Shown: positions 6,543-57,596 of the stretch, one piece after another
Position numbering within the stretch: position 1 is the stretch's first letter
Layout: every line of letters begins with the position of its first letter
NCBI RefSeq assembly: GCF_024713945.1
Contig: NW_027461519.1
Location: 186,001 to 250,000, forward strand
Length of the DNA: 64,000 nt
Origin: Dermatophagoides farinae
Lineage: Eukaryota; Arthropoda; Arachnida; Sarcoptiformes; Pyroglyphidae
Direction: 5' to 3'
The notes under the pieces: model-generated
Seen by the model: the letters and a program-made list of their open reading frames with translations, nothing else
Told to the model about the DNA's origin: nothing
Database searches by the model: none
Made by a program: the position numbers and the translations under genes

Positions 6543-7255
6543 TTAAGCGCCAAATCGTTTCAAAATTAGTTTTATAAAAGAGCTGAAACTAGCATCGTCA
6601 CTAATAGGAGAATAAAACACCGGATTTATTTTGATTGTTCTTAGCGAAATAATACTGAAGAGGAAAGACAACATATTCACAATGCAATACACAGACGTAG
6701 CTATATGATATTCATGTATATTGCAATTTGCAGTAAATAACAAGTTTAACAAAATAACTTGACAGACAAAAAAATTATATAAGTCAATTAATTTAGCTGC
6801 GTTTGGCAATATACAAACAAGCATACCGAGAAAAGTCAATGTTCGTTGCCAGTTGTCTTTTTTGTTAGCGTATTCGAGTACGTATGCTGTAGCCAAAGAG
6901 CTAACAAGATAGCATACTAGTTTTAAATACGAAATAATCATGATATATTTGCTGAGTGACAGGACGTTACATGTGTTACCACTAGTTAAAGATGTGTTTT
7001 TGGAAGTAATAAAAAACTGGTTCAAACTCACTGCAGCTATGAGAGATAGTATACCATGCCAAACATAATACCCGCCATAAGTTCTGTTAAGTTATTTGTC
7101 AGTTAAACGTACCTGATTTTGAAAAAGTTTCTGGCGAAATTAAAAAACGCACGACGTTTTAATTCGCTAAGTAAACTTGGATCTACCTCATTAGTGTTTG
7201 TTGGAACAGGAGTAGAAAAAGATTTATCGTTTTCTAGATTAGTTGTCGGTTGCAT
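6543..7255 (-). CDS. Multi-pass membrane protein with a 29-nt intron
   Basis: Exon 1 is 7255..7113 and exon 2 is 7083..6543, joined across a 29-nt intron, giving 227 residues. Exon 1 encodes a polar N-terminus ending RRAFFNFARNFFKIR. Splicing continues it with TYGGYYVWHGILSL, which carries the first hydrophobic segment. About five hydrophobic segments follow, and the protein ends in a short charged tail. Without the intron the frame would begin after the first membrane segment. I do not recognise a family. Phase, length and composition all support the join. Confidence 0.7.
7084..7112 (-). other. 29-nt intron
   Basis: Begins GTACGT and ends TTAACAG on the minus strand. It contains a plausible branch region (ATAAC) about ten bases from the 3' end. 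Removal joins two frames into one continuous membrane protein. It has the same length as the introns at 27357-27385 and 57456-57484. Confidence 0.75.
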
Positions 7256-7330
7256 CGTTACCTATAATCGCTAACGCTAGGATCAAATTAGTTTAGCATA
7301 CTGCTAGTTCATCTAATTTCGAAAATTATT

Positions 7331-7936
7331 CTAAATTTCATTTTTTTTAAAAAGCGAATTAAAGTCAGAGTTATCATCGAGACCAAAGAATTGCATTCTT
7401 TTCGCACTTTTACTTAGTTTCTTTTTTTTTATATTTTTGCTAATACCTGTTTTAGTATTCTCGGATATTGTATTATCAATTTTATCTTTTTGTTTTATAG
7501 TAGAACTACCAGTACATACTTTTACTCCCACAAGTTTTGGATAGATTTGATCAGGTTTTTTTACTTGGACGTCAGGTTTTGGTTTGTTTTTTTGACTAAA
7601 ATAGTTTGCCAGAGTTTCTCTTAACTCTGTGACCGAATTATTGACTTCTTTATTGTTAAAGTTAGATATATTAGCAGAACTAAACTTGTAATCTAACTCT
7701 TTTTGTTTATCGGAATCTATTTGTGGATAATTTTTCGTGTTTTTTTTTTCTATTTTATTAATACACTCATTTGTTTTATGCTCAGTTGACTCACAAAACT
7801 CACACTTTTTTTTTAAACAAAAAGATACCTTAACGCTCGAAGTCTCACTACGACTGACTTCAGGAATGGAATCTTTTATTCCGTTAGATTCAGTATACCA
7901 TGGATTTAGCTCAAAGTTTATTCCATCATTATTCAT
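7331..7936 (-). CDS. Zinc-knuckle protein of unknown function
   Basis: A 201-residue polar protein from the ATG at 7936. One CCHC zinc knuckle is visible (C-x2-C-x4-H-x4-C, CEFCESTEHKTNEC, about residues 45-58). The rest is low-complexity, rich in Lys, Asn and Ser, and ends with KRMQFFGLDDNSDFNSLF. Such knuckles often bind RNA or single-stranded nucleic acid. Nothing else identifies a family. It stands divergent from nothing close by: upstream is a 635-bp gene-free stretch. Confidence 0.6.
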   Translation of the reverse strand: MNNDGINFELNPWYTESNGIKDSIPEVSRSETSSVKVSFCLKKKCEFCESTEHKTNECINKIEKKNTKNYPQIDSDKQKELDYKFSSANISNFNNKEVNNSVTELRETLANYFSQKNKPKPDVQVKKPDQIYPKLVGVKVCTGSSTIKQKDKIDNTISENTKTGISKNIKKKKLSKSAKRMQFFGLDDNSDFNSLFKKNEI

Positions 7937-8571
7937 GTTAAGCAATTGATATAAACAATTGATTATTTTTGTTTATGCTGAAAAACTCAATTAGAAATAC
8001 GTTATGAAACGAATGAGAAAAAAAGTAGAAAAAATTATTCAACATTATTAAAGAACAGGCGTTCCAAACAACTAAATTAAATTGATTTTATTTAGCAATT
8101 TTATAAAAATATAGACCGAACGTACATCTAAAATAAATATTGTTGATCGATCTCAAATTAATAATGCTTTGTTTTATGAAATATAACAGAAGGCACAATA
8201 AAACAAGTTAATTAAATGATAACAAAATATTGAAAGTACAACGCTATAGTTAAAGTAAAGAATAATCTATGGAAAAGTTTTAGTGCGAAGAAAAAAGTAA
8301 ATAATTAAAATTTGAAGTTTATTAATTAAAATAGTGGATAACCATAGAACTGTTTTAATAAAGGAAAAGAGAGGATTAATTTGAAACAGTTTTAATCAAA
8401 CAAATTTTGACAAAGCAGATTATATTCTTTACTATAACTAAGCATAAAGCATTATATAAAATTATAACTAGATATCATAACTAATGGGAAAGGCCAAAAT
8501 ATCATACGGATAGGATGATAAATTCCTTTAAATTTATTACTAAATAAGTCGAACTATAGGGATAATCAAAG
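7937..8571. other. Gene-free AT-rich spacer
   Basis: About 635 bp, the longest spacer in the window, lying between two minus-strand genes. It would hold the 3' end of the 8572-10146 gene and the promoter of the zinc-knuckle gene. I saw no coding frame of note, no tRNA and no paired C/D boxes in it. Confidence 0.5.
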
Positions 8572-10146
8572 TTAAAAAGAGTAAGACCAATTGTTAATTG
8601 ATAATGGGTTGTAATCATTGCCGGTTAAATTGAAGTTTAAGGGCATTTCTGAATCGCCTGAAAAGTAATCATGGCCCCAGTACATGTTATCAGTAGTAGT
8701 AGTAGAGTGATCTGGAGAGTAAACATTATTAGTAGTATAATTTTCAACGTCTGCTACAGGGGATGGTAGCGTTTCATCTATTTTTTGGTTTAAAGAAGAG
8801 TTTCCAGATTGATCATTTAACAGAGCGTAAACGCCGTTTACAGCAGGAAGCTTATTAACTTGTGATGAAGAGTTTTTATAATTTTTCTGCACTTGAGTAC
8901 CAGAATAGTTATTTTTAACTCGGCTAGATCTTAGGTGGCCGCGTCGTTTTTTGAGAGATTCGTTTTTTTCTTCTTGGTTTCTGCAAGCATGAACAACTTT
9001 ATCCCATAAGTTACAAATAAAAGCCATTCTAGATAATTGATGTACTGTGGCATTTCGAAGCTCCGCATAACGGAATCCATGACGTTCCAATACTTCATCC
9101 ATCAAAACTGGATACTTTTCATGCATTCTGCGAAGTTGAGTACGAAGAGCTTCTCGGCCTTCTTTTCCTAAGATGATACGTCTGTTTTCCTCATAAATAA
9201 TCGAACTAATACGGCCATTACGATCGCGTTCTGTTACCATATATTCACGTCTTACGTACTTTCTCATTTGAGACTGTTCAGCTTTAAACTTAACAAAGGC
9301 ATCGTGCCAGTAACAAAATTCATTAGTTGTTCTTTCAATATGCACGCGAAGTGCGACGTTCCAAAGATTCCATTTGTAAGCTAATTCCAGAAGAACAGGG
9401 ACACTGGCTCCTTGTAGTTGTTTGCCTTTACAGCCACGCAAATTGAGACATGCTCTCAATAATTCTCTGCCTCCTTCTCCTAATTGGAAGCTTGCCAATG
9501 GGGAGTACTTTATTAGCAAGGAGCTGTAACGTTTATTATTTAGAAATTCACTGATATCATTTAGCCTTTCGACGGTTGCAGCGTCGAGCTCAGGCCTAGT
9601 GATAAACTTCGGATTTTTTGGCTCCATATTTGGCATGTTGAGGTACTCACCCATATTGACTCGTTGATCAATATCCATTTTAGTAGATGGTCCGTCGCTG
9701 TTATAAGTTTCCGACATAGTTGAGGGAATGTTGGCAGCTAAAGAATTCAAGCTGGGAACCTCAGGAGAAATGTTGAAGCTATCGAACATCATACAGTCTC
9801 CATTTGTAGACAGTTGCGGAGTCACACATTGAGAGTTTATAATGGAATTCGGATAATAGCTTGATTGCTCCCACAAAACATCTTTCATAACGTTGTACTT
9901 TGGCGGAATAGACGAGCTGTCCTGACTCTCTGAGCAAATATCGCTTCTGTCCTCGATGTCCGCGTTGTGAAAATACATTCCATAAGAATACGCCGGCGAG
10001 TACGGTTCTAGTGCCGACAGATTCATATTTTGATTGTTTCTCACGGTTTCAGCGTATATACTGTCTTGAATTTCTTCTTGAAATTCAGAATAATCTATTT
10101 TGTTTGTCATTTCAGTTTCTTTTTTGTGGTACTTAGACACATTCAT
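8572..10146 (-). CDS. Unknown protein with a duplicated helical domain
   Basis: A 524-residue protein. The acidic, Ser-, Asn- and Tyr-rich N-terminus (about 1-185) and the Ser-, Asn- and Thr-rich C-terminus look disordered. Between them, about residues 200-400, two related units can be seen. Each starts LGxxGRExLR and ends with L-x2-(L/M)A-x4-LW (LLELAYKWNLWNVALRV and LSRMAFICNLWDKVVHA). The linker is strongly basic (RKYVRREYMVTERDR), as is the segment after the second unit (KKRRGHLRSSR). This arrangement suggests a regulatory or nucleic-acid-binding protein, but that is inference. I do not recognise the family. Confidence 0.75.
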   Translation of the reverse strand: MNVSKYHKKETEMTNKIDYSEFQEEIQDSIYAETVRNNQNMNLSALEPYSPAYSYGMYFHNADIEDRSDICSESQDSSSIPPKYNVMKDVLWEQSSYYPNSIINSQCVTPQLSTNGDCMMFDSFNISPEVPSLNSLAANIPSTMSETYNSDGPSTKMDIDQRVNMGEYLNMPNMEPKNPKFITRPELDAATVERLNDISEFLNNKRYSSLLIKYSPLASFQLGEGGRELLRACLNLRGCKGKQLQGASVPVLLELAYKWNLWNVALRVHIERTTNEFCYWHDAFVKFKAEQSQMRKYVRREYMVTERDRNGRISSIIYEENRRIILGKEGREALRTQLRRMHEKYPVLMDEVLERHGFRYAELRNATVHQLSRMAFICNLWDKVVHACRNQEEKNESLKKRRGHLRSSRVKNNYSGTQVQKNYKNSSSQVNKLPAVNGVYALLNDQSGNSSLNQKIDETLPSPVADVENYTTNNVYSPDHSTTTTDNMYWGHDYFSGDSEMPLNFNLTGNDYNPLSINNWSYSF

Positions 10147-10442
10147 GAGTTTTGTAATGAAAATTATATGTATTTAAACACAAATTTTCAGCACTACCAC
10201 GTTATAGCTGGAGTATTTATATAATATTCAAAAGAAAACTAAAAATAATCAAATTAATAAAAATTATCTTTTGTAAAAAATCTTTAAAATATTATTTTTT
10301 AATTTTACATAATAATTTTAATAATGTCAAAAAGACACAAAAGAATTTAATATATACTTCCGTAAATTCTAAATGCAATATGTTCGGAAAATTTATAAGG
10401 CTCATTTTTTTCTAAGCTCGTTTGTTTAATATTCATGCATAT

Positions 10443-12179
10443 ATGGACGACTCAGCTTTTGGTAATGTATTGGTGGTCGGTGCAGGAGGCTTAGGTTGTG
10501 AAATTTTAAAAAATATATCCACTTTTTCACTTAAACGCATAGGTATCATAGATATTGACACAATTGATATCACTAACTTAAATCGACAGTTTTTTTATAA
10601 CGCTGATCACATAGGAAGTCACAAATCGAAAGTAGCGGCGCATGTTTTAACAAATTTTTTACAGAACAGGGTGAAAATCAACTTTTACGTCTCGACGATC
10701 CAAGATTTTTCTGAAGAGGCGTTTAAATCCTTCGATATCATAGTTTCTGCGTTAGACAACGTAAAAGCACGATCTTATTTGTCGAAACTTTGCATTAAAT
10801 ACGACAAACCACTAGTCGAAGGAGGCAGCACAGGGTATAATGGCCAATCTTATTTGATTTGGAACTTGTGTGATACAGAGTGTTCTGACTGTAGAAAAAA
10901 ACCTACGCGCGACAACTTCCCGGTCTGCACTATCAGAGGTCTTCCTACGCTACCTGCCCACTGTATCGCTTGGGCGCTGATGCTTTTTGACTCTATATTT
11001 CACGGCACCTCAAATTCTGAACTTATTTACAAGAGTATCTCACAATGGAAGCTAACTGACTTGCCAAGAGCTTTTAATGCATTTATCGAAGAAATTTACA
11101 CCACACAAGTTCTGAACGTAAGCACCACCCAATCAAAAAATTTAGTTTTAAGGACTATTCAATTAGAGAACAAAGATTTTACAGACGTCTGGCAACAAAT
11201 TCTATCGAATAAAGTTACCGAATATAGTACTTCGATTTACGAAGTAGACGCAAAAAAAATTTTTACAGTTCACGATTATATAAAAGATTTGTTTATTTCG
11301 ATAAAGCTACTTAGTAAGAACTTTGACAAAGATCAAACTTTGGCACTAGCGTTTGACAAAGACAACGAAGATTCGGTCCACTTTATTTGTGCAGCTGCAA
11401 ATTTACGTGCGCACTGTTTCCATGTCCCATTTGAATCGTTGTGGAACATTAAGGGAATTGCAGGACGAATCGAGCCTTCATTGATTACAACAAATGCAAT
11501 AGTAGCAGGTTTCCAGTCTAAATTAGTGAGAAAGGTGCTAACTATACTGCAGAAAGAAACTGAAATAAATGCTTCAGTCTTGGAGAAATACTCAGTCGGC
11601 TATGTATGGGTAACGTTAGATAATGATAGTAAGAATATTGTAATACGCGATAAATTAGAAAGAAAAAATCCAAAATGTTCGTCGTGTTCTATTAAATACA
11701 ACAAGTTGTACGTAAAAAACTTCGATAGCATCAAAATAAAGGACATAGTTGAATATTTCAAAGCAGAATTGGATAAAACAGTTGAAATGATCATGTTCAG
11801 AGATGATATTATTTATGACAACTTCGACAGTGAGCCCAATCGGGATAGTACGTTTGAAGCGCTAGATATTTCCGATCTCTCGCACTTGTGCATCATAGCA
11901 AACGGGGATTCAATAGATTTAATTATAATTAAGAATGAAAACCTTGACAAGATTTTTAATTTAGAAATTAAACAGATAGATAACACATTGGCTCAAACAG
12001 AAAGTAATGCTGAAGTAATAGACATCAGCGATAACGTTAAACCAACTTCAGAAGACGTTTCCCATGCCACAGACGATGAGGGTGATATCGAATTTCTTAT
12101 GGAAGAAAATTCTACAAAAAAACGACGGCATAGCCCTGTTGATTTTATTGCTGCTACTCATGACAAAAAAAGAAAATAA
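10443..12179 (+). CDS. UBA2: SUMO-activating enzyme subunit 2
   Basis: 578 residues from the ATG at 10443. The N-terminal adenylation domain has VLVVGAGGLGCEIL (about 10-23) and the ATP/Mg region NLNRQFF. The catalytic cysteine lies in FPVCTIRGLP (Cys162). A CxxC pair (ECSDC) and a second pair (CSSC) would bind the structural zinc. The C-terminus is acidic and ends in a basic cluster (KKRRH...KKRK) suited to nuclear import, as in UBA2. It works with AOS1/SAE1 to activate SUMO. TTG-initiated extension upstream is unlikely because the ATG sits right at the expected Rossmann start. Confidence 0.92.
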   Translation: MDDSAFGNVLVVGAGGLGCEILKNISTFSLKRIGIIDIDTIDITNLNRQFFYNADHIGSHKSKVAAHVLTNFLQNRVKINFYVSTIQDFSEEAFKSFDIIVSALDNVKARSYLSKLCIKYDKPLVEGGSTGYNGQSYLIWNLCDTECSDCRKKPTRDNFPVCTIRGLPTLPAHCIAWALMLFDSIFHGTSNSELIYKSISQWKLTDLPRAFNAFIEEIYTTQVLNVSTTQSKNLVLRTIQLENKDFTDVWQQILSNKVTEYSTSIYEVDAKKIFTVHDYIKDLFISIKLLSKNFDKDQTLALAFDKDNEDSVHFICAAANLRAHCFHVPFESLWNIKGIAGRIEPSLITTNAIVAGFQSKLVRKVLTILQKETEINASVLEKYSVGYVWVTLDNDSKNIVIRDKLERKNPKCSSCSIKYNKLYVKNFDSIKIKDIVEYFKAELDKTVEMIMFRDDIIYDNFDSEPNRDSTFEALDISDLSHLCIIANGDSIDLIIIKNENLDKIFNLEIKQIDNTLAQTESNAEVIDISDNVKPTSEDVSHATDDEGDIEFLMEENSTKKRRHSPVDFIAATHDKKRK

Positions 12180-12195
12180 TCGAAGTACAATGAAG

Positions 12196-12585
12196 TTATC
12201 TCATGTTCAAAAAGTTGCTTCTGATCGAATCTAGTTTTATTTCATTCCGATCAGTCGCTTGTATTAATTTACAACACCCAAGAAACTGGTTCATCACGTA
12301 CAGTGAAGAGGTTGCGTACAGCATTCTATCTCTCACGGTGCTTTTTTCTGGAGCCCACAGTATCAGCACTAATTTTGATGTTTCTGGCAGCTCTACTGCT
12401 GCAAAACAACATTTATTATCTTGAAATTTTTCAACAAATAAGTTGTAAGGCAATTTTCCTGACTCTATTAACGAAAGTCTCTGGGTTTGTACGATGTTGA
12501 AAAAAATAAAGTTCAAGTCCCTTTTTCTAAACTTCATGTCATTCCACGTATCTAGGCATTCTTTATCAATAGTAATGAGAGTCAT
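12196..12585 (-). CDS. Actin-depolymerising factor / cofilin
   Basis: 129 residues from the ATG at 12585. A single ADF-homology domain is visible: DKECLDTWNDMKFRKRDLNF at the N-terminal strand, then KLVLILWAPEKSTVRDRMLYATS, which is the diagnostic long-helix region (W-x-P-[ED]-x3-[VI]-[KR]-x-[RK]-M-x-Y-x-[ST]-[ST]). It severs and depolymerises actin filaments. The compact size resembles protist ADFs. It converges with UBA2; the two stops are 16 bp apart. Confidence 0.93.
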   Translation of the reverse strand: MTLITIDKECLDTWNDMKFRKRDLNFIFFNIVQTQRLSLIESGKLPYNLFVEKFQDNKCCFAAVELPETSKLVLILWAPEKSTVRDRMLYATSSLYVMNQFLGCCKLIQATDRNEIKLDSIRSNFLNMR

Positions 12586-12799
12586 AATCAATTTATTTAT
12601 TAAGTGAAAATTCACACAAGATCTATCTAGTCTGATTAAACAAATGAAATAATTTACAGTTTTCTTATTTTATCGCAATTTTATAATTTTTTATTTATCA
12701 AACACCTTGTATTATTCCGATTAAAAGATACCAAAAAAAATCTAAAAATAGCGATATTTATTCAAAGTTTGTGTTGAAAAACTTATCGTCAAAAAATAA

Positions 12800-13288
12800 A
12801 TGTCAACCAAGATTTGGTTTTCAAAGAAAAATGAAATCAATCCAGTTCAACATCAAAACCCGTTAATAAATATTAAAAAACTTACTGTAAAAAATAAACT
12901 TCCAACACAACCACTTCCTAAAGATGTTTTAGAAAAAATTAACGCACTATGGAACGACTATATAACTAACTTAAGCAAACATGAAAAACTATTTAGCAGC
13001 ATTGGAAATTTGTTGTACTGTGCTGAATTGATAGGAGCTCGTATACAAATAATTCGTTCAACGAATTTAATGCAGAATAAAATCGAAGGAATCATTTTGA
13101 ATGAAACAAAAGAAATGCTGCTTGTTCAAACCGAAAGAAAAGTTGTAAAACTTATTAAAAAAACGATTGGGTTTTTATTATTAATGAAAAACAAAAAAGT
13201 GTTTTATATCAACGGCCCGTTGTTGATTAGAAATCGAGACAAAAAAATAAATTATAAGCCGACAATAGGTGAAAAATTAAGGCCATAA
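12800..13288 (+). CDS. POP4: RNase P/MRP protein subunit Rpp29/Pop4
   Basis: 162 residues. The C-terminal half has the Rpp29/Pop4 Sm-like core: LIGARIQIIRSTN, then IEGIILNETKEMLLVQT and a basic strand KVVKLIKKT. The N-terminal half is a basic helix region. The protein belongs to RNase P, which trims the 5' ends of tRNA precursors, and to RNase MRP. The start is the first ATG. The C-terminus ends soon after the core, as is usual for the family. Confidence 0.82.
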   Translation: MSTKIWFSKKNEINPVQHQNPLINIKKLTVKNKLPTQPLPKDVLEKINALWNDYITNLSKHEKLFSSIGNLLYCAELIGARIQIIRSTNLMQNKIEGIILNETKEMLLVQTERKVVKLIKKTIGFLLLMKNKKVFYINGPLLIRNRDKKINYKPTIGEKLRP

Positions 13289-13383
13289 TTAATTTATTTT
13301 AAAGAGATTTTTAGAACGCGTTTATAACGTTTAAAGCGCTATTTGAGATTTAAAATAAATTCCAATAAATTGTCCTAGCGAAT

Positions 13384-15864: not shown

Positions 15865-16040
15865 ACTAGAAAATCACTCTGATAATAAAGAAAAATACAG
15901 CACACGTAAGAGTTACATATATTATTCTAACTAACTAGCATTTATTTTTATCAACGTTTAAATTAATTTAACAAAAATACTTGCAGTCATAATATATTAT
16001 TCCCATTCACTAGCAAATAAACTAATAGATTTATCAAGAA

Positions 16041-16745
16041 ATGGTTAGAGCTTATACTCTGAATGATCTCGAAAGTCAAAATAATTACCGATCGAATGGC
16101 TCTTATAACACGTATTATAATTCAGGAAGCCGACCAAGTGTTTTGGCCATGATGTTCCCAGGATTCAAAATACAAAGTTTCACTTTTATCATGAGTTGCA
16201 CGTTGGTAGTTATTCAGCTGATTGATATAATTTTATCTAATAACTATTATTGGAACCGCTTTATCTACAGCGTAAAATATGATTCGGGATTATTAGTGCA
16301 GGAAGGAAAAGTATGGTGTTTAATCACTTGTATTTTTTTTCACGCTAACTTTCTCCATTTACTATTTAATGTATTAGGATTATTCAACCTTGGTTTCATC
16401 ACAGAAGCTGTCTACGGTTCTTTACCAACTTTGTGCATATATATGATCACAGGAATACTAGCTAATCTTTTTAGTACTGCTATATCTCCTCTAATTTTGT
16501 CTGTAGGGGCAAGTGGCGCAATATTAGGATTTATTGGAGTTAGAGGCGCGCAAATTGCTTTATTTTGGGATCATTTAGTCAATCGAGAGATCGTTATATG
16601 GAGTTATATTATTAACGTATCTTTCATGCTTCTCTTTAATTTAGTTTCACCCGGCGTCAATACTTTAGTTCATCTGTTCGGGTTAGTAATAGGATTTTTG
16701 CTGGGCTTATCTTATCCCAAGTCGAGCTTCACTTTACCTCCGTAA
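16041..16745 (+). CDS. Rhomboid intramembrane serine protease
   Basis: 234 residues with about six or seven membrane segments. The family motifs are in order: HANFLHLLFN (101-110, loop/TM2 with the Asn region), the catalytic serine in GASGA (Ser159) and the catalytic histidine in HLFGL (His211). Cytosolic N-terminus is polar and Tyr/Ser-rich. Rhomboids cut single-pass membrane proteins within or near the membrane; in apicomplexans they shed surface adhesins, though the role here is not shown. Full length and apparently active. Confidence 0.93.
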   Translation: MVRAYTLNDLESQNNYRSNGSYNTYYNSGSRPSVLAMMFPGFKIQSFTFIMSCTLVVIQLIDIILSNNYYWNRFIYSVKYDSGLLVQEGKVWCLITCIFFHANFLHLLFNVLGLFNLGFITEAVYGSLPTLCIYMITGILANLFSTAISPLILSVGASGAILGFIGVRGAQIALFWDHLVNREIVIWSYIINVSFMLLFNLVSPGVNTLVHLFGLVIGFLLGLSYPKSSFTLPP

Positions 16746-16825
16746 GTTTTTACCTCTCATTATTTTTTAGTTGGACTAAACAAGCTCAGATTGTTTCTAT
16801 CTCTATATTAGTGATTTTAACAATA

Positions 16826-24601: not shown

Positions 24602-24678
24602 CAAGATAAAATATAGTACCCCTAATATTAGAATAGCTAAAAAAATAAAAAAATTTTGAATTTTTAGTCTGTTCTTTT

Positions 24679-26012
<1,334 letters not shown>

Positions 26013-26016
<4 letters not shown>

Positions 26017-27346: not shown

Positions 27347-27885
27347 ATGATAAAGGGTATGTTCAGATGTTAATAAGTTTAATAGTTGTATTGGTCGGTG
27401 ACTCGGGCGTAGGTAAAACTACGTTAGTTTCTACTTTTGTCAAGGGGAAACCCGACCTTGAAATCACTTCAACGGTTTGCATTGAAATGCGTGTACATGA
27501 GGTCGAATTGATAAATTCTTCCTTTGTCAAATTAGAAATTTGGGATTCTGCTGGGTGTGAGAAATACAGGTCTGTAGCTAAAAATCACTATAAAAACGCG
27601 CTGGGAGCCTTAATCATTTATAATATAACACAAAGAGAATCATTTACGAATGTCGACAACTGGCTAAAATTAATTAGAGAGAATTGCCCAGAAGACACGG
27701 TTATTTACCTGATTGGAAACAAGTTAGATCTAGTGGAAAAAGACAATCGAGAAAGAGAAGTGAAGTTCGATGAAGGATTAAATTATGCAAAAAAAAAAAA
27801 TCTTCTATTTTACGAAGTCAGTGCTTACTCTGCTCACGATTTTAATAAAATTTTTACATTATTGCGTCTGATATATGGAAAATGA
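27347..27885 (+). CDS. Rab-like small GTPase with atypical switch II and no prenyl cysteine
   Basis: Exon 1 is 27347..27356 (10 nt) and exon 2 is 27386..27885, across a 29-nt intron, giving 169 residues that start MIKVVLVGDSGVGKT. G1 is GDSGVGKT (8-15), G3 is WDSAGCEKYRS, G4 is NKLDL and G5 is SAYSA. The usual DTAGQE reads DSAGCE, so the catalytic Gln is replaced by Cys61; the switch I TxGxE becomes TVCIE. The protein ends LRLIYGK without the C-terminal Cys needed for prenylation. It might act as a slow or non-hydrolysing, soluble Rab-like protein; this is inference. It lies inside the frameshift-rich block but is itself intact. Confidence 0.85.
27357..27385 (+). other. 29-nt intron in Rab-like gene
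   Basis: Starts GTATGT and ends TTAATAG, with a TTAATAA branch-like stretch. Splicing after the tenth coding base turns an odd N-terminus into the canonical KVVLVGDSGVGKT strand and P loop of Rab proteins, so it is the best supported of the three 29-nt introns. Confidence 0.88.
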
Positions 27886-32894: not shown

Positions 32895-33093
32895 GTCGAA
32901 TTATGCTTAATTATTATAAAATATAGGATATAAGTCACAGGATTATTATCTTTTGAACATGATTTATTTAATTATAGCTCAGAAGAAAAATGTACGAATA
33001 GAATAATATGTTTGGAAAGAAAATTATCGAAGGTTATTTATTTTTTCTCGAATATTTTCGTTGCGTTAAAATTTTTTTAAAACGACTAAGGCA

Positions 33094-33855
33094 ATGGACA
33101 GTGAACTCTCTTTCTTACCAGGTAAAAACATTATAATTCCTTCAGTTCCCACTCCACATAACAACGCTAAGCAAGGAGAAATAGCTGAAGTTGTTATTTT
33201 GTGTGGCGACCCTCTTAGAGCGAAATTTATTGCTGAAAACTATATGACAAACGTCGAAGAAGTAAATAATGTTCGAAACATGCTTGCCTTTACCGGTTAC
33301 TACAAAGAAAAGAGACTCACTGTTATGGGAAGTGGAATGGGTGTAGCCTCTTTCTCCATTTACGCTTACGAGTTGTACACCGCTTATAATGTCAAGAGAA
33401 TCATTCGAGCAGGCACTTGTGGAGGTTTCTTTGAAGAAATGAACACAGGTTCGATTGTCTTGGCCCAAAGCGCTTGCTACGAGCCCGGTTTTATTGAGCA
33501 GTACAGGCTTCCAGGTGTGTATTCGACTTGTGCCAGCTTTTCGTTACTTAAAATAGCAGCCGAATATGCTGAGGATAAAGAATTTGAATTTAGAATAGGT
33601 AACGTTCTTACATCTAACTCTTTTTACAACGACGGTAACGACGCTCTAGCATGGCGTAAGCTCAACGTGCTTTGTGTAGAAATGGAAACTGCCGCTTTGT
33701 ATACATTGGCTGCGCGTCTTGGAAAAGAAGCTCTAAGTATTTTAGCCATTTCTGATAACATTGTTGCTCCTGGAAAAATTTTAACTTCTGAACAGCGTCA
33801 AAAATACTTATCAGGCTTGTTTACTCTTGCTCTTTATGTTGCAACTAGCGACTAA
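33094..33855 (+). CDS. Purine nucleoside phosphorylase, bacterial DeoD type
   Basis: 253 residues. The PNP/UDP fold is clear: TPHNNAKQGEIAEVVILCGDPLRAKFIAE, then VNNVRNMLAFTGYYK, GSGMGVASFSIY, IIRAGTCGGF and VEMETAALYTLAA. The catalytic Asp is present in AISDN, and the downstream Arg of SEQRQKYL corresponds to the second catalytic residue of E. coli DeoD. The enzyme phosphorolyses purine nucleosides to base and ribose-1-phosphate, serving purine salvage. It is more like bacterial hexameric DeoD than animal trimeric PNP. The His of the bacterial SDH motif is Asn here, and an N-terminal extension of about 20 residues is present. Confidence 0.9.
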   Translation: MDSELSFLPGKNIIIPSVPTPHNNAKQGEIAEVVILCGDPLRAKFIAENYMTNVEEVNNVRNMLAFTGYYKEKRLTVMGSGMGVASFSIYAYELYTAYNVKRIIRAGTCGGFFEEMNTGSIVLAQSACYEPGFIEQYRLPGVYSTCASFSLLKIAAEYAEDKEFEFRIGNVLTSNSFYNDGNDALAWRKLNVLCVEMETAALYTLAARLGKEALSILAISDNIVAPGKILTSEQRQKYLSGLFTLALYVATSD

Positions 33856-43809: not shown

Positions 43810-43823
43810 AAGTCAATCGATAT

Positions 43824-49219: not shown

Positions 49220-49270
49220 GAGGCTATATTGCTACTGATAAATTCCTAGTTGTCTCTGGAAGAAAAGTTT

Positions 49271-49861
49271 TCAGCGTTTTTCGCTGTCATTCCCAATTTC
49301 AGAATCGTTTTGTACGGTAAACTCCAAACCGTCTGGAAGGGAAATGTTATACATTCGAGTTCTTTTGGGCAACAAACTTTTCTTGTTTATGTTTTCCTGG
49401 CGCTTGAGTTTTTTCATCAGCTTTTTAGGGTATTTTTCAGTAGGATTTATATTGATGGAAACTCTTCTCAGAGCATCGTAATTTCCTTTTTCTGGATCGA
49501 ATTCTTCTTCTCTAGAATTTGCTTTTTCATTTCTGAGAGCTTCTTCTATTATTTTTTTTGATAGGTTTTCTAATAATTCGTCGTATTTTTCTACCGGTTC
49601 CGGTTCAATTAATAAATCAAGCGCATATGTAGGATCCGGCTTTGTTATATACAAAGGGTTTGCGTTATCACAGAACAAATCCAAACATTGCTTGGGCGCG
49701 TAATTTATGTTTGTTGAATAGGCGTTATTGCTGAGATGTAATTGTTCAAATAGAAAACTTACGCTACCATGATCTCTTGAGTTGCGGTAACTACGTTTCG
49801 GGCTATTCTGTCTGCTATAAACGGAGGCACTTTCTGAGAAAAACAAGCCTTTGAAAGCCAT
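49271..49861 (-). CDS. Unknown basic protein
   Basis: 196 residues, charged, without a signal peptide or membrane segment. The middle has an acidic helix (EPEPVEKYDELLENLSKKIIEEAL) and the C-terminal half a basic one (KYPKKLMKKLKRQ). No family recognised. The gene is closely packed between two secreted-protein genes (51 and 131 bp). Confidence 0.55.
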   Translation of the reverse strand: MAFKGLFFSESASVYSRQNSPKRSYRNSRDHGSVSFLFEQLHLSNNAYSTNINYAPKQCLDLFCDNANPLYITKPDPTYALDLLIEPEPVEKYDELLENLSKKIIEEALRNEKANSREEEFDPEKGNYDALRRVSININPTEKYPKKLMKKLKRQENINKKSLLPKRTRMYNISLPDGLEFTVQNDSEIGNDSEKR

Positions 49862-49992
49862 AAAACAAAGCCTAACACAAATTTGTTGGTTTGGACTAGC
49901 ATAGATGTTTATTTGTTATAAAAATTATACTGCAATACACATTAGATCTTGGGACATGACCAAATATCTTATTTGAAAAAATACAGTTATGT

Positions 49993-51963
49993 TTAAATAG
50001 ATACAGTGTGATTTCTTGGCTTGTTGAAAAGTGACTGAAACGAGTCCGAAAACAATGTCGGAGACAACCCAAATAACATTGGAATGGGGATTTTTTCCAA
50101 ATTGATCATGCTTTCCCAGTTGTACACAAACTGACCTATTGAAAGCCCTAGAGCGAGTTGTCTCCTGTTGGCGTGTTTACCCATCCAGCCAGCGTTTATA
50201 CCAAAATTTTTAGTACTAAAGCGGCCCATGAATTCAGGATTTCCGTCTTCGCCAAATCCGAACCCGGCAGTAACTCTGGCGTTTTTTCCGTCGCCAACCC
50301 CAATTATGTGTTCCATGGCTTTTGACTTGTTGTCCGGCATGTCAGAATGGAAGTAAACGTCCCAATTCTTGCTGTTAATGCCGGGAAGCCGAGTCGAGAT
50401 GTCGACAATGCGATTGTCGACGTCGAGCTTTCCTGCCGCGAAACGGTTGCCAATACCCACACCGGCCGAATATCGGTTGGACATGATATCTGAACCGACG
50501 TTGACAAACTTATCCTTCCAGTTAATGAAAGCTTCAGTAGCTGGCTTGGCTGAGTCTTTAAGAATGTGCTGATCAAAATCGTGCCTGACACCAATTTCTC
50601 TGTCCTTGTAACGAACCTTCATACCGTAGTTTCTGTCTAAAGCGTTAGAAAGAGTTCCAATCGTGACGTTGGGTGTTTCGATGCTGAGCCCCGTTGCGTC
50701 CTGGTCGTTTTCTCGGTAAACGCGCAATCCATAGCCTTTGACATTGATAGCTTCGTCAATGAAATCTTCTCTTAGATTGACTGTGGAGCTCACGCTGAAT
50801 TTGTTAGGCCGAGCAACGTTGAAGCCTACCTCACGGTCTGCAATGTCCACGTTTCCTCCAGCGCTAAACTTTCCTTTTTTACCTAAATGAACGCCAGTCA
50901 TTCCAGAGTTTAAGTCTTTCATAATTGTTGCATAATGGTCACGCAACGCAATGTCTGACTTTACTGAACTTATTACTGAAGGCCCAAACTTATATTTGGA
51001 ATTGATGTTATCGTCACTAGCCAGGTGTGTTTGAATGTTTATTGTGTCAAGCTTTTTGTTGCTGTTCATGTTTAATGACGTCTTGATAGCGTTAACTAAA
51101 TCCGGCTGTTTCAAATGCTGAATCCTGTCAAACAGCTGACTAGGCAGTTCTTCTAACCTCCGTTCTTTTTGAAAACCTGTTTCCCGCATTAGTTTGTCAC
51201 TTCTTTGAAAAATATTACTTCGACGAATAGGAAAATGATTCTCATCTGATCCTGGTATTCCGTCAGCGTAGTTATTCTTGTAAAACGGCAAAATAATAGA
51301 TTCAACAAAACTGTATTCTGGACCACTTGAATTTGAAACAATAAACAGATAGATTTCAGTACCATTTTTTAAAAACAATACCGTAGCTTTATTCTGGTCC
51401 TGGTTGCTTTGTAAATAATTTATTCCTATTAAAGAATTGTCCAACCACTTCTCATTTAGATAAAAGTCATCAAAGTGAGTCTCTGAATATTGATAAGAAG
51501 CTGAAACTTCGAAACACTGTTTTTGTGCTGATAGTTCATTTAATCGAGAGAGATCATTTTGAGGCAAATCAGTCACCAATATATAATCAGGAATTGAGTA
51601 CGAATCTAACGGTGGTAACCACTTCTTTCCAAAAAAAAACAATCTTTGACACTTTGAGCGCTTGCAAATTGATCTAACTAGTTGCAAGTCAACTTGATCA
51701 TTGCTATTGAAATAAATTAGATAAGCAGATTTAATGTCACCTAACAAATTAGATATGAATGGTTTTGTTGATTCAACCGTGTCAAAAAAATGTTTTTTAT
51801 CTGTAGCGTTATTTGAGTTGTTTTGCCTTGAATTAGTAGGAAGAAATAATATCCGATCGCTATGGATAACAAAACTAGAAGTATCTGATATACATGGTTG
51901 GAAGACCTTGAAGGAAGAAACAAATATACTCGAAGCAATAAAAAAAAATGACTTGAAATACAT
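49993..51963 (-). CDS. Secreted protein with beta-rich C-terminal repeats
   Basis: 656 residues with an N-terminal hydrophobic signal (MYFKSFFFIASSIFVSSF). From about residue 350 to 630 short alternating segments recur around the pattern DREVGFNVARPNKF, DREIGVRHDF and DNRIVDISTRLPG, with many Gly and alternate hydrophobic residues. This is typical of antiparallel beta-sheet, beta-prism or beta-barrel-like structure. The N-terminal half has Cys residues and may be a separate domain. I cannot match it to a family. Gene composition is relatively GC-rich in the repeat part. Confidence 0.65.
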   Translation of the reverse strand: MYFKSFFFIASSIFVSSFKVFQPCISDTSSFVIHSDRILFLPTNSRQNNSNNATDKKHFFDTVESTKPFISNLLGDIKSAYLIYFNSNDQVDLQLVRSICKRSKCQRLFFFGKKWLPPLDSYSIPDYILVTDLPQNDLSRLNELSAQKQCFEVSASYQYSETHFDDFYLNEKWLDNSLIGINYLQSNQDQNKATVLFLKNGTEIYLFIVSNSSGPEYSFVESIILPFYKNNYADGIPGSDENHFPIRRSNIFQRSDKLMRETGFQKERRLEELPSQLFDRIQHLKQPDLVNAIKTSLNMNSNKKLDTINIQTHLASDDNINSKYKFGPSVISSVKSDIALRDHYATIMKDLNSGMTGVHLGKKGKFSAGGNVDIADREVGFNVARPNKFSVSSTVNLREDFIDEAINVKGYGLRVYRENDQDATGLSIETPNVTIGTLSNALDRNYGMKVRYKDREIGVRHDFDQHILKDSAKPATEAFINWKDKFVNVGSDIMSNRYSAGVGIGNRFAAGKLDVDNRIVDISTRLPGINSKNWDVYFHSDMPDNKSKAMEHIIGVGDGKNARVTAGFGFGEDGNPEFMGRFSTKNFGINAGWMGKHANRRQLALGLSIGQFVYNWESMINLEKIPIPMLFGLSPTLFSDSFQSLFNKPRNHTVSI

Positions 51964-52088
51964 TTATGTGTTAGATTATGTTTTTCTTTCAAGTTTATGG
52001 TATTTCTTAAGTGCAATAAATTTCCCAAAAAACATGAAAAGATATTAGAACACAGATTAAGTGAGCTAGTGTTGAGAAAAACATTCAG

Positions 52089-53405
52089 CTATGGATGTTT
52101 TCTAATTGTTAAACACTGGTTATTAGCGTAAATCTGATTGATTCTCTTAGTTTCAATTTCAATATCCTTGCAAAAACTAATATCTGCCAACATATTCTTT
52201 ATCGTTTCAGGAGACATAAAAGCCGAATCGCGTTTTGATGAAAGAAGTTGTTTCATAAATTCTTCTATTTCACAAGTCTTATGAATGTTGTCATTATGCA
52301 GACTTCTTGGAAGTTCAAAGTTAGTAAGACTGAATTCCATATCAACTTTTAACTGAGCGTCTGGATCATTGTTACTCTTAAAAGTCCACCATTTTCGAAC
52401 TTGTTCACATATGTCTATATGAGTCAACGTGTGCGTAAATTGAGCTGAAGTCGCAGTATGTTCAAGACAAATGACCAACACGGGGATTTGTGCATTTGTA
52501 CTTGTTAAAGGCAAATAATTCAAAAATTGGAATTCACCAACTTTAATAGCGCATTTAACTATTTCACCATTGAAAGAAGAGTTTTCAAAATAACTCGTCA
52601 TTGTATAATCTTTAACGTTGTAGTTGCTAGTTTGAGTGGCTTCAGAATTTTTTATGCTAAAAACTTTATAGTAAATACGTGGAAAATCTACATATTGACC
52701 TATCATTTTTTGTAATGTCTTATATTGAATTACAAACGGATCGCTCAACGTATTTGCTTTAACTTTGTTTGGATTAGGCAGATATATTGGAGCGTGATCT
52801 CCTTTTAGCCAGTTCAGCCCGTGGTACTCGATGTGATCTACTTGACAAACCGGAAGAGGTAATTGGTACATAGCTTCGTCGACCGAAATTTCTTGTAGCA
52901 TGCCTTTGAGTATAATTTCTAAAACCATACATAACCTTGTATCAGTAAATTTACATGAATTCAAAACCACAATTATAAGCTGTAACAATGACTTGTAGTT
53001 AGCGTCTTTACTAAAGTTTCCAATATTGACATCGGACTTGATAAATGGCACATGCATCGTATAATCGGTAATGCAAATAAATGCCTCAACTATTGTTTCA
53101 ATCTGTACATTTAGCTTTTCCAAAAAAATTTTAATCTCTCCGTCTCTTGAACGGCATACATCATGCAAATATTTGCTGATTCGCTTAATTAAGCTGACAT
53201 GTGCTTCTAAAGCTTCTTTAACGTGATCTATCATCAAAGATGTCGCACGTATCTGTTTGACGAGAAAACTGTTTTCCTGCTTTATTTCATTCAATAAGCT
53301 TCGGTAAAAAATTATTTTGTCCTCCCATTTATTTTTTACTTCAAGTTCCTTCTCTAACAACAAATTAAGCTTTAGTTTCTCTGGTAATAACTGGGATTTT
53401 ATCAT
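52089..53405 (-). CDS. Unknown protein with N-terminal coiled coil
   Basis: 438 residues from the ATG at 53405. The first 110 residues form a heptad-like helix (LLLEKELEVKNKWEDKII). The C-terminal two thirds contain mixed alpha/beta sequence with several Cys and His (LPLPVCQVDHIEYHGLNW, LVICLEHTA). No signal peptide, membrane segment or known motif. A cytoskeletal or structural role is possible but not supported. Confidence 0.6.
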   Translation of the reverse strand: MIKSQLLPEKLKLNLLLEKELEVKNKWEDKIIFYRSLLNEIKQENSFLVKQIRATSLMIDHVKEALEAHVSLIKRISKYLHDVCRSRDGEIKIFLEKLNVQIETIVEAFICITDYTMHVPFIKSDVNIGNFSKDANYKSLLQLIIVVLNSCKFTDTRLCMVLEIILKGMLQEISVDEAMYQLPLPVCQVDHIEYHGLNWLKGDHAPIYLPNPNKVKANTLSDPFVIQYKTLQKMIGQYVDFPRIYYKVFSIKNSEATQTSNYNVKDYTMTSYFENSSFNGEIVKCAIKVGEFQFLNYLPLTSTNAQIPVLVICLEHTATSAQFTHTLTHIDICEQVRKWWTFKSNNDPDAQLKVDMEFSLTNFELPRSLHNDNIHKTCEIEEFMKQLLSSKRDSAFMSPETIKNMLADISFCKDIEIETKRINQIYANNQCLTIRKHP

Positions 53406-53838
53406 AAAACGCAATTGCACCTTGCATAATCATAAAGCGTGACCTATTAATTTTTAGAATAATAGTTATTTGCATTGAATTTCATGTATAAGCGTTAAAC
53501 TACCTAGTCATGTATTATGCGAATTATCATTGAATTTGGCCCATGAACCAACTTTTTCTATTGTTTTTCTCATATCTGTTGCGTTAGCTAATGTTTTTAT
53601 ATTAGCTCAAGAGTTCTATACTATATGCAAAGGATAATATTCTAAGTTAAACTTTCATTTTTCCTCACTAGACGAAGTATTAATGATTTAAGCCATTTGC
53701 GTAAATAACAAGATAATCGTTCTATCTAAGACACAAAATATAATATAAAGATGTAACTTTCAATTGATAATAATTGTTCAGTTTTATATAATCTGATTTT
53801 TCATATTGGCTGAAAGTTAATTGAGGTTGTTTCAAAAA
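53406..53838. other. Intergenic spacer
   Basis: 433 bp of AT-rich sequence between two minus-strand genes. I looked for snRNA-like and C/D box snoRNA signals and found none; no coding frame of note. Confidence 0.45.
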
Positions 53839-56800
53839 TTATACATTTTCAAATAAGACTAATTTATCCAGTTTTTTTACTGGGCCGTTAAGTTTAGAAA
53901 CTAATTTTTTGGGTGTTAGACTGACCTTAGCTGCCTTTTTAACATCCAACACTTTGGCATTGTCTAGTGCTCTAGTAAATTTTGATTGAGAAACCTCTCT
54001 GATGCCTTTTTTAATAATTTTAGGACTAAACAGCGGTTTAGTTTGCCCGTTTGTTGTTAACTTTAGCTTAGGGAGTATTTTCCGTTTAGAAATGGTATTG
54101 AGATTTTTTTTTACAATAGGTGATTTCATAGATCTAGTCACTAGATCGTCTTTAGCAACAAGCTTTTTTCCGAGAGTCTTGCTAATTAATAAAGATTTTG
54201 CATTAGAATCAGAGCTGTGCGTTTTTTTAATATTTTCAAGTTTTGAACTACTTAATTTTGTTTTTGCGCCACTCTCGTTGCTACTTTCGACTATAGTTTC
54301 AGAAGTTTTTTTAACGTTTATTGCGTTCTCGGTCGTGTTATTTTCTTCCCCGATAAGTGGTGCTTTGACTGTTGTGGTAAAACCTTTTTTTATTTCTACT
54401 AATTTATTACCACTTCTTGTATCAAGCTTTTTAGTTTCTAATGTTTCAGTTCTCTTTGTCTTTTCAGCAACTGATTCTATTTGAGAATTTAACTGTGGTG
54501 ATTTAGAACTAGACAAAGATTTATTTAGAATTTTAGTTTGTTTAAATGTAACTGCATCACTATCATGAGTTGACTTAGAAGTTTTTTTCGATTCTGCTGG
54601 AACGGGTGTTTTAAGAGTCATTGAAGCTAGTTTTTTTTTAGCTTTAGTATTTTCATTTGGCTGTTTTGTTTTTAATGCTTTGGAAACTGGTGTTTTAAAG
54701 TTAACTTTATTTTCTGGCGAAACATTTGAAGATAAAGTATTAGCTACTTTTTTGCTTAATAAAGTTTTTTTTATGAAAGCTTGAGTTGATTTTTTAGTTT
54801 GACCTAATGTTGCATTCATTGTAGACACAGAACCTGGCTCTTGACTAGAATTTATTAATTTATCAGAGCTAAGTTCTTTTATTCCGCTTGTTTTTGTTAA
54901 TAATTTTTTTTTAGTCAGTTGATCTTTAGATGTAGTAGCTGATATAACGTCTTCTGATCTAGGTGAAGTAATATTTAAAGTATCAGTAATAAAAACATCT
55001 TGTTTCTTGTTATTAGCATCGGATGTTTTAAAGACCATATCATTAGTTTGATTATGCATTAATAAAGATTTTTTCGATATTAATGGAGCTGATAGCACCG
55101 ACGACGAAGTTTTAACACTATTTTCTTTATTAAGTGAGTTAACTGGAAACTGATCTACAGTGTTTGGGATTTCAATTACTGATTTGCTTATACTACCTGA
55201 GCTCTGAGGTTTTTTATTTAACAACTTAGTTGATACTTGCGTTATACTATCTGTTTTCGTAGTTTCTATAAGAATTTTATCATTCATTTCAGTTGCCAGA
55301 GTTTTTGATTCTGTATTGGTTTCTACTTTTGTTTCATTATTTTCTGGTTTTTCAAACGATACAGAACTGTTTGGAATTGATTCATTCCTAGCTTGACTCG
55401 ATCGTTTATCTACATCAACATTTGCTTTATCAGAATTGAGATCATTTTTACTAGCGTCACCCGGTGAAATACTTTTATTATTTTCTGGTATTTTATTTGG
55501 TATAGTCCTTTTTGTAGTATCATTTTGAGTATCAGATTTAATTATATCAGGTTGTGTTGATTTTAATGAAATAGATTTTTTAAGTGTTACGTGTTCTTTA
55601 AGTGATTGGTCTACTCTATCATCATTTTCATTGGGCTTACTTTTGAGATTATTTATCGATGATTTCACTGTCTTCAATGATTTGCTTTGTTTCAATTTAC
55701 TCATTGGGATATTAAACTCACTAGTTGCTTTATTTTTCAAGGATAACATTTTAATTAGATTCTTTGCTCCAAACACTTTATGTGAATCTCTATCTTCTAA
55801 AAGTTCTCGTTTTTTGGCCTCAATTAATTTTGTTTTATTAATAGCTTTAAGTCGTTCAATGCGAGCTACGCTCTCAGCTAGAATTTTTTTATTTTCCGTT
55901 TTGGGTTTAAAATCAGCTGAACTTTTTTTAACATCAAATGTAGTGAACTTTTTAGTTAAATCCTTACTAATTGCTGCTTCAATAGCTTCTTTTTTCATAG
56001 CAAAACTAGTTTTTCGTAACGGATCGGGCTTAGATGTTTTAGTTGCAAGGTTAAATTCGGTTGCTTTATCTTGGATATCTACCTCTTTAACACCGCTGCC
56101 ATTAATCATTTTGCTAGTAACTGGAACTGCGGTTACTTCATGATTATCTAATTGAACACCAAAATTTTGCATAGGCACTGATGCGTTAATAGGTTCTAAA
56201 TCAGATACCTCGATATTTCGCTTACCTGGTTGATTAAGGTTCATTAGTAAATTTAGGTTAGCTGGATTCAAATAAGAATTATAACCAATATTAGAAACAT
56301 CATTCATCATGTTATTGGGAGCAATAAACTGTTGTTCAGGGAGTGGTTGTTTAAAAGGTTTTCCAAACAAGTCGACATTTTCTTTTACTCTATAAGCTAA
56401 CAGAGCCGAGTTTCTTGGAATTGGAAACAAGTTTAATAAAATAGTTCCGACGATATTGTTATTAGAAACTAAATTGTAGCTGTTGTACTGCAATAAAGTT
56501 GCAGGGTCAACTAGAGAAATTTTTGCGGTTAACGGCGGACTTAGTAAATTATTTGCATCGTATACAGTCACTATAATAGAAGAGTTATATCCATTCTTCG
56601 ATATATCAAAATTGTCTAGATCAATAGTTTGACGAATTATGGCATTTCCTTCGTTACTGAATAACCAATCTTTCGCTATACGATTATTGTTTTTGATAAT
56701 TTGTTCCTCATCTTCATAATCATAACGACATGTACAAATTGCTATTCTACTCGCTGGTATTGATTCTGGGTTTGTAATATTTATTTGCCCAAATTCAATA

Positions 56801-57596
56801 GACATTCCGGTTAATCTAATATTAACATCACCTTTATGAGTATTGTTTGTTAAACAAGCCATTGCTTGTTTAGCAATTAAATTTGCTTTTATAAACGCAG
56901 CGTTCTCTTCGTTTGTTTGAAATAAATTTCTGATAAACAAAGGAATATCGTTACTGACGGCCCATGGATAAACACCACGTTCAACAAGTTCATTAAAAGA
57001 AGGCGGTGGGGGCAATGAAATGTCTGTCGGTAAAGGCTTAATACCGGCAGCTACTTCAAGAATAACACCAAACAAACCATCTATTCTAGGATCTAAACTA
57101 CGGCAAGGATACAAATAGTCAAGTAATAGTCTCACTTTTTCTTCTCCAGTTTTTGGAGGTGAAAAAGCAAGATTACCACAAATACCAGCTAACGATTGAG
57201 TTAACGTATCTAGCTGAAAATATAATAATTGAACTCTTTCGAAGACTTCTTTGATTTGTTTTGGATGATGAAGGGTTGCTTCTATTCTTTTTTCTAAAAT
57301 AGATAAATCTGAGTTTGCTTGTTGAAGTTCATGTTGAACTTTTTGGTACTCATTTAATAAATGATAATTTTGCGTTTGCAAATTTTCTCGTCTTTTTTTT
57401 TCTCTCGAAAATAGCAAAAAATAGAACTTAGCTTTCTTTTCGAGTTCGCTGTTAGCTATAACTTAGCATTTGTTCACAACGTACCATTTTCAAAAATTGC
57501 TACATTAGTTTTTTCAGCGTAATTTGTTCGTATTTTAGGTACATTATTAAGTTTATGAGCTGTTCTGGCGAAACTTGAAGCTTTTCGTCCGATCAT
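53839..57596 (-). CDS. Coiled-coil protein with long Lys/Ser-rich tail, 29-nt intron
   Basis: Exon 1 is 57596..57485 and exon 2 is 57455..53839, across a 29-nt intron, giving 1,242 residues. The splice replaces an ATG-less start by MIGRKASSFARTAHKLNN. Residues about 50-110 are a coiled coil, followed by a conserved-looking, Pro-rich folded part (LDPRIDGLFGVILEVAAGIKPL) and, near residues 235-380, a beta-rich region that could be C2-like. The remaining 800 residues are low-complexity, rich in Lys, Ser, Thr and Asn, with recurring KKLL/SKSL patches. It may be a cytoskeletal or microtubule-associated protein; no family recognised. Confidence 0.68.
57456..57484 (-). other. 29-nt intron
   Basis: Starts GTACGT and ends GTTATAG on the minus strand, with a GCTAAG branch-like stretch about ten bases before the end. 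It removes an in-frame TGA and joins an ATG-initiated exon to the long frame. Confidence 0.8.

What the first reader, a model, noticed from the sequence alone, without database searches (positions are those of the whole stretch)
7084..57484. Three independent introns of exactly 29 nt
Introns at 7084-7112, 27357-27385 and 57456-57484 all have the same length, start GTACGT or GTATGT, end TAG or CAG, and keep a TAA-containing stretch about 6 to 12 bases from the 3' end. All lie near the 5' end of their gene. A narrow length mode this short implies a spliceosome tuned to tiny introns, as in some ciliates, piroplasms and nucleomorphs, while a 194-nt intron is also spliced. Gene finders with a minimum intron size would miss them and lose correct N-termini.
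Basis: partly seen in the sequence, partly recalled or inferred. Interest (0 to 1): 0.78.

Follow-up and report, generated by a model that had tools for sequence, protein, structure and literature searches.

The report
Tiny introns from a hidden apicomplexan
The three 29-base introns look real and belong to a class of very short introns (about 26 to 36 bases), and they lie not in the house dust mite whose genome assembly holds them but in the compact genome of an apicomplexan-like microbe that appears to have been assembled with it.

Summary
One has homology support: splicing completes the N-terminus of a Rab11-like GTPase. A gene finder with a flat length prior, run on 216 kb, put 15 of 21 introns at 26-36 nt against 3 of 65 for six decoy signals. 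With the two window introns it did not choose, 21 short introns run from 26 to 36 nt; eight are 29 nt, so 29 is the mode, not a fixed length. GTAAGT is the commonest donor, and the TAA stretch is at chance level. The 194-nt intron splits RPL32 and holds a C/D-box snoRNA candidate, which may explain its length. The window is contig 16 of an assembly whose contig statistics match the published Dermatophagoides farinae genome. Contigs 11-21 (3.59 Mb) look non-mite: own PRP8, uS4, eight CCT-family and eleven proteasome places, and all AP2, CPW_WPC and alveolin hits listed. Best reading: an unreported apicomplexan, possibly a gregarine. Gregarines offer a precedent (Porospora, mode 28 bp). The introns are a new member of a known kind; the hidden genome is the bigger find. 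No RNA evidence was available.

The parts
7084..7112 (-). 29-nt intron GTACGT..CAG; exons 7113-7255 and 6543-7083; joined 227-aa protein of unknown family
   Evidence: joined protein matches no Pfam family at E up to 1. The gene finder chose a 116-nt alternative (7037-7152) that scores almost the same (13.0 against 12.9 nats): the weakest of the three
27357..27385 (+). 29-nt intron GTATGT..TAG after 10 nt of coding sequence in a Rab11-like GTPase (exons 27347-27356 and 27386-27885)
   Evidence: Pfam Ras 150.0 to 152.4 bits, profile start from 2 to 1; best PDB chain 3bfk Rab11, alignment from residue 2 through the junction. Not chosen by the gene finder, the first exon being only 10 nt
57456..57484 (-). 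29-nt intron GTACGT..TAG in a gene of 1,244 codons (exons 57485-57602 and 53839-57455)
   Evidence: listed by the gene finder with GTRNGT/YAG at penalties 7, 3.5 and 2; with any GT..AG it chose a 23-nt version ending AAG in the same frame
49731..49762 (-). predicted 32-nt intron GTAAGT..CAG (exons 49763-49902 and 49271-49730)
   Evidence: coding statistics only, no homology; the unspliced frame from 49861 is also open
4392..4585 (-). 194-nt intron GTAAGT..TAG in RPL32/eL32 (exons 4586-4825 and 4227-4391)
   Evidence: spliced 134-aa product matches PF01655 over profile 1-108 of 108, E 4.5e-45
4443..4521 (-). C/D-box snoRNA candidate inside the 194-nt intron: C box ATGATGA 4510-4516, D box CTGA 4448-4451, guide-like ACCATCTTTCG 4486-4496
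   Evidence: best Rfam matches SNORD96 (25.2 bits, gathering 43) and snoMe28S-Am982 (25.5, gathering 49): below the curated scores; no match at the gathering scores
2266..3906 (-). CCT eta, one of eight CCT-family places on contigs 11-21

Best explanation
The introns are ordinary GT-AG spliceosomal introns of a size-constrained class (26-36 nt, mode 29) in the compact nuclear genome of an apicomplexan or close myzozoan relative that lives in or with the dust mite Dermatophagoides farinae and was co-assembled with it. Shown here: the sequences, frame-restoring splicing, the length class against decoys, homology for two 29-nt junctions (Rab11-like here, a metallophosphatase on contig 17), an own copy of PRP8, and marker genes confined to contigs 11-21. 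Inferred: an own spliceosome recognises the whole intron as one short unit, using a GTRNGT-like donor, a T-rich stretch and YAG, perhaps with a branch adenosine near -11; genome compaction shortened introns to near the minimum; the RPL32 intron escaped because it carries a C/D snoRNA.
For: Length class. Homology across junctions: Rab; Metallophos 29-214 over a 29-nt junction at residue 103, the one of nine spliced proteins scanned whose domain crosses a junction; RPL32 for the 194-nt intron. The mite chromosomes run through the same finder, trained on themselves, give 23 introns of 44-289 nt, none at 26-36 (one decoy gave 25, so single mite introns there are not reliable, but 10 of the 23 lie at 55-71 nt and none of the decoy's do). 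Second organism: gene-dense contigs, PRP8 on C14 beside one on C7, uS4 on C20, CCT-family, proteasome. Apicomplexan: CPW_WPC 9 of 9 listed hits on C15, C18, C21, AP2 4 of 4 on C11, C14, C16, C19, alveolin 1 of 1 on C14, CCCTAAA at 2 of 18 readable ends of contigs 11-21, uS4 and Rab11 best matched by chains that I recall as Plasmodium or Toxoplasma (the second uS4 chain, 9ygm, is unknown to me). Assembly identity.
Against: No RNA-seq. Eleven of its 30 introns at penalty 2 lie outside the short class and are unconfirmed. With any GT..AG pair the contrast shrinks to 5 of 20 against 4 of 39. Eight of nine spliced proteins scanned show no domain across the junction. eL32 is best matched by chains other than those I recall as Plasmodium and Toxoplasma, cofilin is uninformative, and PNP is a DeoD type unlike the chains recalled as Plasmodium. 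The alveolin model also rings in Caulobacter and AP2 in Deinobacterium among the 14 prokaryote controls. No tree was built. No rRNA of the second organism was found: a 28S motif occurs only on C1, C4 and C5, and the SSU search did not complete usably. Contig 12 carries no marker tested.
Confidence: 0.85

Rival explanations
1. The introns are mite introns: contigs 11-21 are unplaced mite chromosome pieces, so the dust mite itself splices 29-nt introns.
For: The contigs are part of the same assembly, which matches the published mite assembly; C11 begins with TTAGG-like repeats.
Against: Second sets of core genes, gene density, intron lengths and marker families all differ between C1-C10 and C11-C21.
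Confidence: 0.03
2. The second organism is an alveolate but not an apicomplexan proper (for example a chrompodellid, perkinsid or other parasite of arthropods).
For: From recall, alveolin, AP2 and TTTAGGG telomeres are shared across myzozoans; only one-gene similarity was tested, with mixed results.
Against: CPW_WPC in 9 places, a family that I recall as apicomplexan and chromerid; best uS4 and Rab11 matches to chains recalled as apicomplexan.
Confidence: 0.15
3. Some of the short introns are not introns but indel errors or alternative starts in a low-quality contig set.
For: NFS1 in this window is split over three frames. A CCT gene on C20 and proteasome genes on C13 and C21 are interrupted too, though short introns could do that as well. 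The first-listed intron has an equal-scoring alternative.
Against: The length peak depends on both GTRNGT and YAG; decoys on the same DNA, with the same errors, do not give it. A 29-nt unit with both splice signals is not a one-base error.
Confidence: 0.07

Closest known systems
Short introns of the gregarine Porospora cf. gigantea (PMC9250747, passages read)
   Same: Apicomplexan; gene-dense genome (84% coding); class of 25-30 bp introns, mode 28, making up 71-72% of introns
   Different: There an adenine is strongly conserved 6 bp before the acceptor; here A occurs in 1 of 21 at -6 and in 14 of 21 at -11. GC 54% there, 34% in this window. About 9 Mb there, 3.59 Mb held here
Babesia microti small introns, 20 bp (mentioned in PMC9250747)
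   Same: Apicomplexan with a small genome and tiny introns
   Different: Shorter; no alignment made here
Ultra-short introns of ciliates (Paramecium and Nyctotherus, around 25 bp; start of the abstract of PMC5014332 in the listing)
   Same: Narrow ultra-short length class in an alveolate
   Different: Ciliates, a different lineage by recall; frames here are open under the standard stop codons
SNORD96 / snoMe28S-Am982 C/D-box snoRNAs (Rfam)
   Same: C and D boxes and the guide ACCAUCUUUCG
   Different: Scores below the gathering cut-offs; target site in the organism's own 28S not seen

Membership tests
Ultra-short spliceosomal intron class | Narrow length peak far below the usual minimum | tested here: met
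   19 of 30 predicted introns at 26-36 nt against 6 of 94 for decoys; none of 23 in mite chromosome pieces
Ultra-short spliceosomal intron class | GT-AG borders and frame-restoring removal | tested here: met
   GT-AG was required by the search; frames restored; homology across the junction for Rab and 1 of 9 spliced proteins scanned, a metallophosphatase
Ultra-short spliceosomal intron class | Spliced RNA reads | not testable with these tools
   No RNA data held
Ultra-short spliceosomal intron class | Own spliceosome | tested here: met
   PRP8 PROCN domain on C14 in a 2341-aa open frame, 529.7 bits, beside one on C7; only PRP8 was tested
Porospora-type small introns | Adenine fixed at -6 | tested here: not met
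   A in 1 of 21 at -6
Apicomplexa | Alveolin (IMC) proteins | tested here: met
   1 of 1 hit, on C14 (again in the spliced protein). The model also rings in one prokaryote control
Apicomplexa | AP2-domain proteins | tested here: met
   4 of 4 hits on C11, C14, C16, C19; one of them under the curated cut-off; rings in one prokaryote control
Apicomplexa | CPW_WPC domain | tested here: met
   9 of 9 listed hits on C15, C18, C21; none listed on C1-C10; rings in none of the 14 prokaryote controls
Apicomplexa | Position in an rRNA or multi-gene tree | not tested
   SSU search not answered usably; no reference alignment held
Gregarines | Tree position or gamont morphology | not testable with these tools
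   Only context: an 18S sequence from a Caparinia mite was identified as a gregarine (PMC6321676, passage read)
C/D-box snoRNA, SNORD96-like | C box, D box and guide | tested here: met
   ATGATGA and CTGA starting 65 nt apart, ACCATCTTTCG between them
C/D-box snoRNA, SNORD96-like | Score over Rfam gathering cut-off | tested here: not met
   25.2 bits against 43

The most novel reading that the evidence does not exclude
Contigs 11-21 are most of the nuclear genome of an undescribed apicomplexan of house dust mites. At roughly 4 to 4.5 Mb it would be the smallest apicomplexan nuclear genome known (two papers read in passages name Babesia microti as the smallest), with its introns compressed to about 29 nt except where one must house a snoRNA.
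Probability: 0.4. Interest if true: 0.75.

Novelty: new member of a known kind. Interest (0 to 1): 0.52.

Why it matters
If right, 5.8% of a public chromosome-level house dust mite assembly is another eukaryote, which affects mite gene counts and the search for mite allergens, since mite cultures may hold this organism too. It adds a further apicomplexan lineage with a 26-36 nt intron class, so minimal intron recognition can be compared between Porospora (adenine fixed at -6) and this organism (candidate near -11). The intron with a snoRNA candidate inside offers a simple natural case of why one intron resists shrinking.

Tried and rejected
SSU rRNA search of the assembly: asked nine times, never answered usably, so no rRNA placement. 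Microsporidian or other fungal identity: considered from genome size, dropped once CPW_WPC, AP2 and alveolin hits were seen. Trichomonad identity: considered from gene density and dropped without a test. A fixed 29-nt length: rejected. A TAA branch motif: rejected. NFS1 at 24649-26016 as the bearer of the 194-nt intron: rejected, its pieces are coding in three frames, while RPL32 holds a clean 194-nt intron. Longer introns from the finder (57-272 nt, 11 of 30 at penalty 2): treated as mostly false, since decoys give such lengths too. 28S motif for the snoRNA target in the second organism: no hit on C11-C21. eL32, cofilin and PNP as placement markers: not informative or mixed. Enrichment of lengths 3n+2 over 3n+1 (14 against 3): noted, not pursued, because it follows partly from the 29 peak.
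Full report
Removing each joins open frames. The strongest case is 27357-27385: after ATG ATA AAG G the intron is removed and the frame runs on as MIKVVLVGDSGVGKT, the start of a Rab GTPase. Pfam Ras rises from 150.0 to 152.4 bits and its start moves from profile position 2 to 1, and the best PDB chain, 3bfk (Rab11), aligns from residue 2 across the junction. The intron at 57456-57484 gives a start codon to a long open frame whose first ATG otherwise lies about 200 codons in. The intron at 7084-7112 is the least certain: the gene finder preferred a 116-nt alternative that scores almost the same.

To ask whether 29 nt is a class, I wrote a small gene finder with a flat length prior (15-300 nt), trained on long open frames, and ran it on 216 kb from contigs of the window's kind. 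With GTRNGT donors and YAG acceptors, 15 of 21 introns lie at 26-36 nt (penalty 3.5) or 19 of 30 (penalty 2). Six decoy signal pairs on the same DNA give 3 of 65 and 6 of 94. The bin was chosen after seeing the lengths. With any GT..AG pair the contrast is weak, 5 of 20 against 4 of 39 for two decoys. Ten 10-kb pieces of contigs 1-10, with a model trained on themselves (33 kb only), give 23 introns of 44-289 nt and none at 26-36; one decoy there gives 25, so single mite introns are not reliable, but 10 of the 23 lie at 55-71 nt and none of the decoy's do. Nine spliced proteins were scanned with Pfam: one, a metallophosphatase in L016 (contig 17), has its domain across a 29-nt junction; in the others no domain crosses one.

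The 19 short introns at penalty 2, plus the two window introns the finder did not choose, make 21: 26, 27, 28, eight of 29, two each of 30, 31 and 32, three of 35, and 36 nt. Donors are GTAAGT 13, GTACGT 4, GTATGT 3, GTGAGT 1, where the finder had demanded GTRNGT. T makes up 52% of positions -11 to -4 and 38% of the rest between donor and there. TAA near the 3' end is at chance level (8 of 21 against 9.7), while A at -11 is found in 14 of 21 (7.3 expected, P 0.002 before correction for 15 positions). This is a candidate branch point, no more. Eighteen of 21 lie in the first 35% of the gene span (positions typed, some genes cut at locus ends).

The 194-nt intron is at 4392-4585 on the minus strand. 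Its removal gives a full-length ribosomal protein L32 (PF01655, profile 1-108 of 108). Inside it lie ATGATGA and CTGA boxes starting 65 nt apart and ACCATCTTTCG, and Rfam's best matches are C/D snoRNAs SNORD96 and snoMe28S-Am982, below their curated cut-offs. The simplest explanation is that this intron stayed long because it houses a snoRNA. The fold of the whole intron is only modestly better than shuffles (z -1.84).

Whose introns are they? The window is contig 16 of a 62.4-Mb assembly. Contigs 4, 6 and 10 have exactly the scaffold N50, contig N50 and N90 given for GCA_024713945.1, the chromosome-level genome of Dermatophagoides farinae, and the number of contigs agrees; the total differs by about 7 kb and the largest chromosome by about 3 kb (abstract and passages of PMC11074847 read). 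That paper reports ten pseudochromosomes and a BLAST filter against microbial RefSeq, and its main text holds none of the words apicomplexa, gregarin or protozoa. Contig 22 (14,266 bp) begins with what looks to me like mite cox1 (label recalled).

Contigs 11-21 total 3,593,788 bases. The eight sampled 10-kb pieces are 71-88% covered by long open frames (the window 85%), against 5-80% for ten pieces of contigs 1-10. They carry their own PRP8, uS4, eight CCT-family places (one could be Hsp60) and 11 proteasome places of the 14 that a eukaryote is expected to have, beside 10 CCT-family and 14 proteasome places on the mite chromosomes; the tool calls such counts lower bounds. CPW_WPC (9 of 9), AP2 (4 of 4, one under its cut-off) and alveolin (1 of 1) hits lie only there; the AP2 and alveolin models each also ring in one of 14 prokaryote controls. 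Two of 18 readable contig ends begin with CCCTAAA repeats. uS4 is best matched by 3j7a, 9ygm, 5xxu and 3jbn at 254-255 bits, then by others from 243; I recall 3j7a and 3jbn as Plasmodium and 5xxu as Toxoplasma, and do not know 9ygm. Rab11 is best matched by 3bfk, recalled as Plasmodium, at 133.8 bits, then 122.6. Against this, eL32 is best matched by 8esq at 145 bits (recalled as fission yeast), with 3j79 at 132 and 5xxb at 129 (recalled as Plasmodium and Toxoplasma), PNP is of DeoD type and cofilin says nothing. Ten of the eleven contigs carry some marker; contig 12 has none among those tested.

What is known: Porospora has an intron class at 25-30 bp with mode 28, making up 71-72% of introns, and B. 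microti has 20-bp introns (PMC9250747, passages). So an apicomplexan with introns of this size is not new. The branch-point hint differs from Porospora (-11 instead of -6). An 18S sequence from another mite, Caparinia, was identified as a gregarine (PMC6321676, passage). I found no report of this organism in D. farinae in searches, of open-licence papers only; of these, 57 and 84 showed 15 of 34 and 12 of 40 papers, and I read passages, not whole papers. If the 18-19 of 22 core genes reflect completeness, the genome is about 4.2-4.4 Mb, but the authors' filter may have removed other contigs.

Noticed in passing
G000 contigs 11-21 (3.59 Mb), window = C16:186001-250000: About 5.8% of the assembly that matches the deposited D. 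farinae genome appears to be a second, apicomplexan-like eukaryote.
   Followed up: yes
window 24649-26016 (+): An NFS1-type cysteine desulfurase is split over three reading frames; either consensus errors or a decaying copy. CCT on C20 and proteasome genes on C13 and C21 are interrupted as well, where short introns are another possibility.
   Followed up: partly
window 4443-4521 (-): C/D-box snoRNA candidate in the RPL32 intron.
   Followed up: partly
window 33070-33855 (+): Purine nucleoside phosphorylase of DeoD type, best matched by 3tl6 and then by DeoD-type chains, unlike the chains I recall as Plasmodium; possibly acquired from bacteria.
   Followed up: no
window 403-1719 (+): Frame that may run in from the window edge, with a borderline Sushi domain (20.6 bits, cut-off 20.7) and, by eye, a membrane segment; a possible surface protein.
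   Followed up: no
L043: Two neighbouring genes on opposite strands, facing away from each other, each with one short intron near its start; one is over the Pfam alveolin cut-off, the other only looks alveolin-like by eye (no Pfam match).
   Followed up: partly
L023 (C11 start): C11 begins with irregular TTAGG-like repeats although proteasome and AP2 hits of the second organism lie within its first 19 kb; perhaps a misjoin or a noisy telomere.
   Followed up: no
21 short introns: Lengths 3n+2 outnumber 3n+1 by 14 to 3.
   Followed up: no
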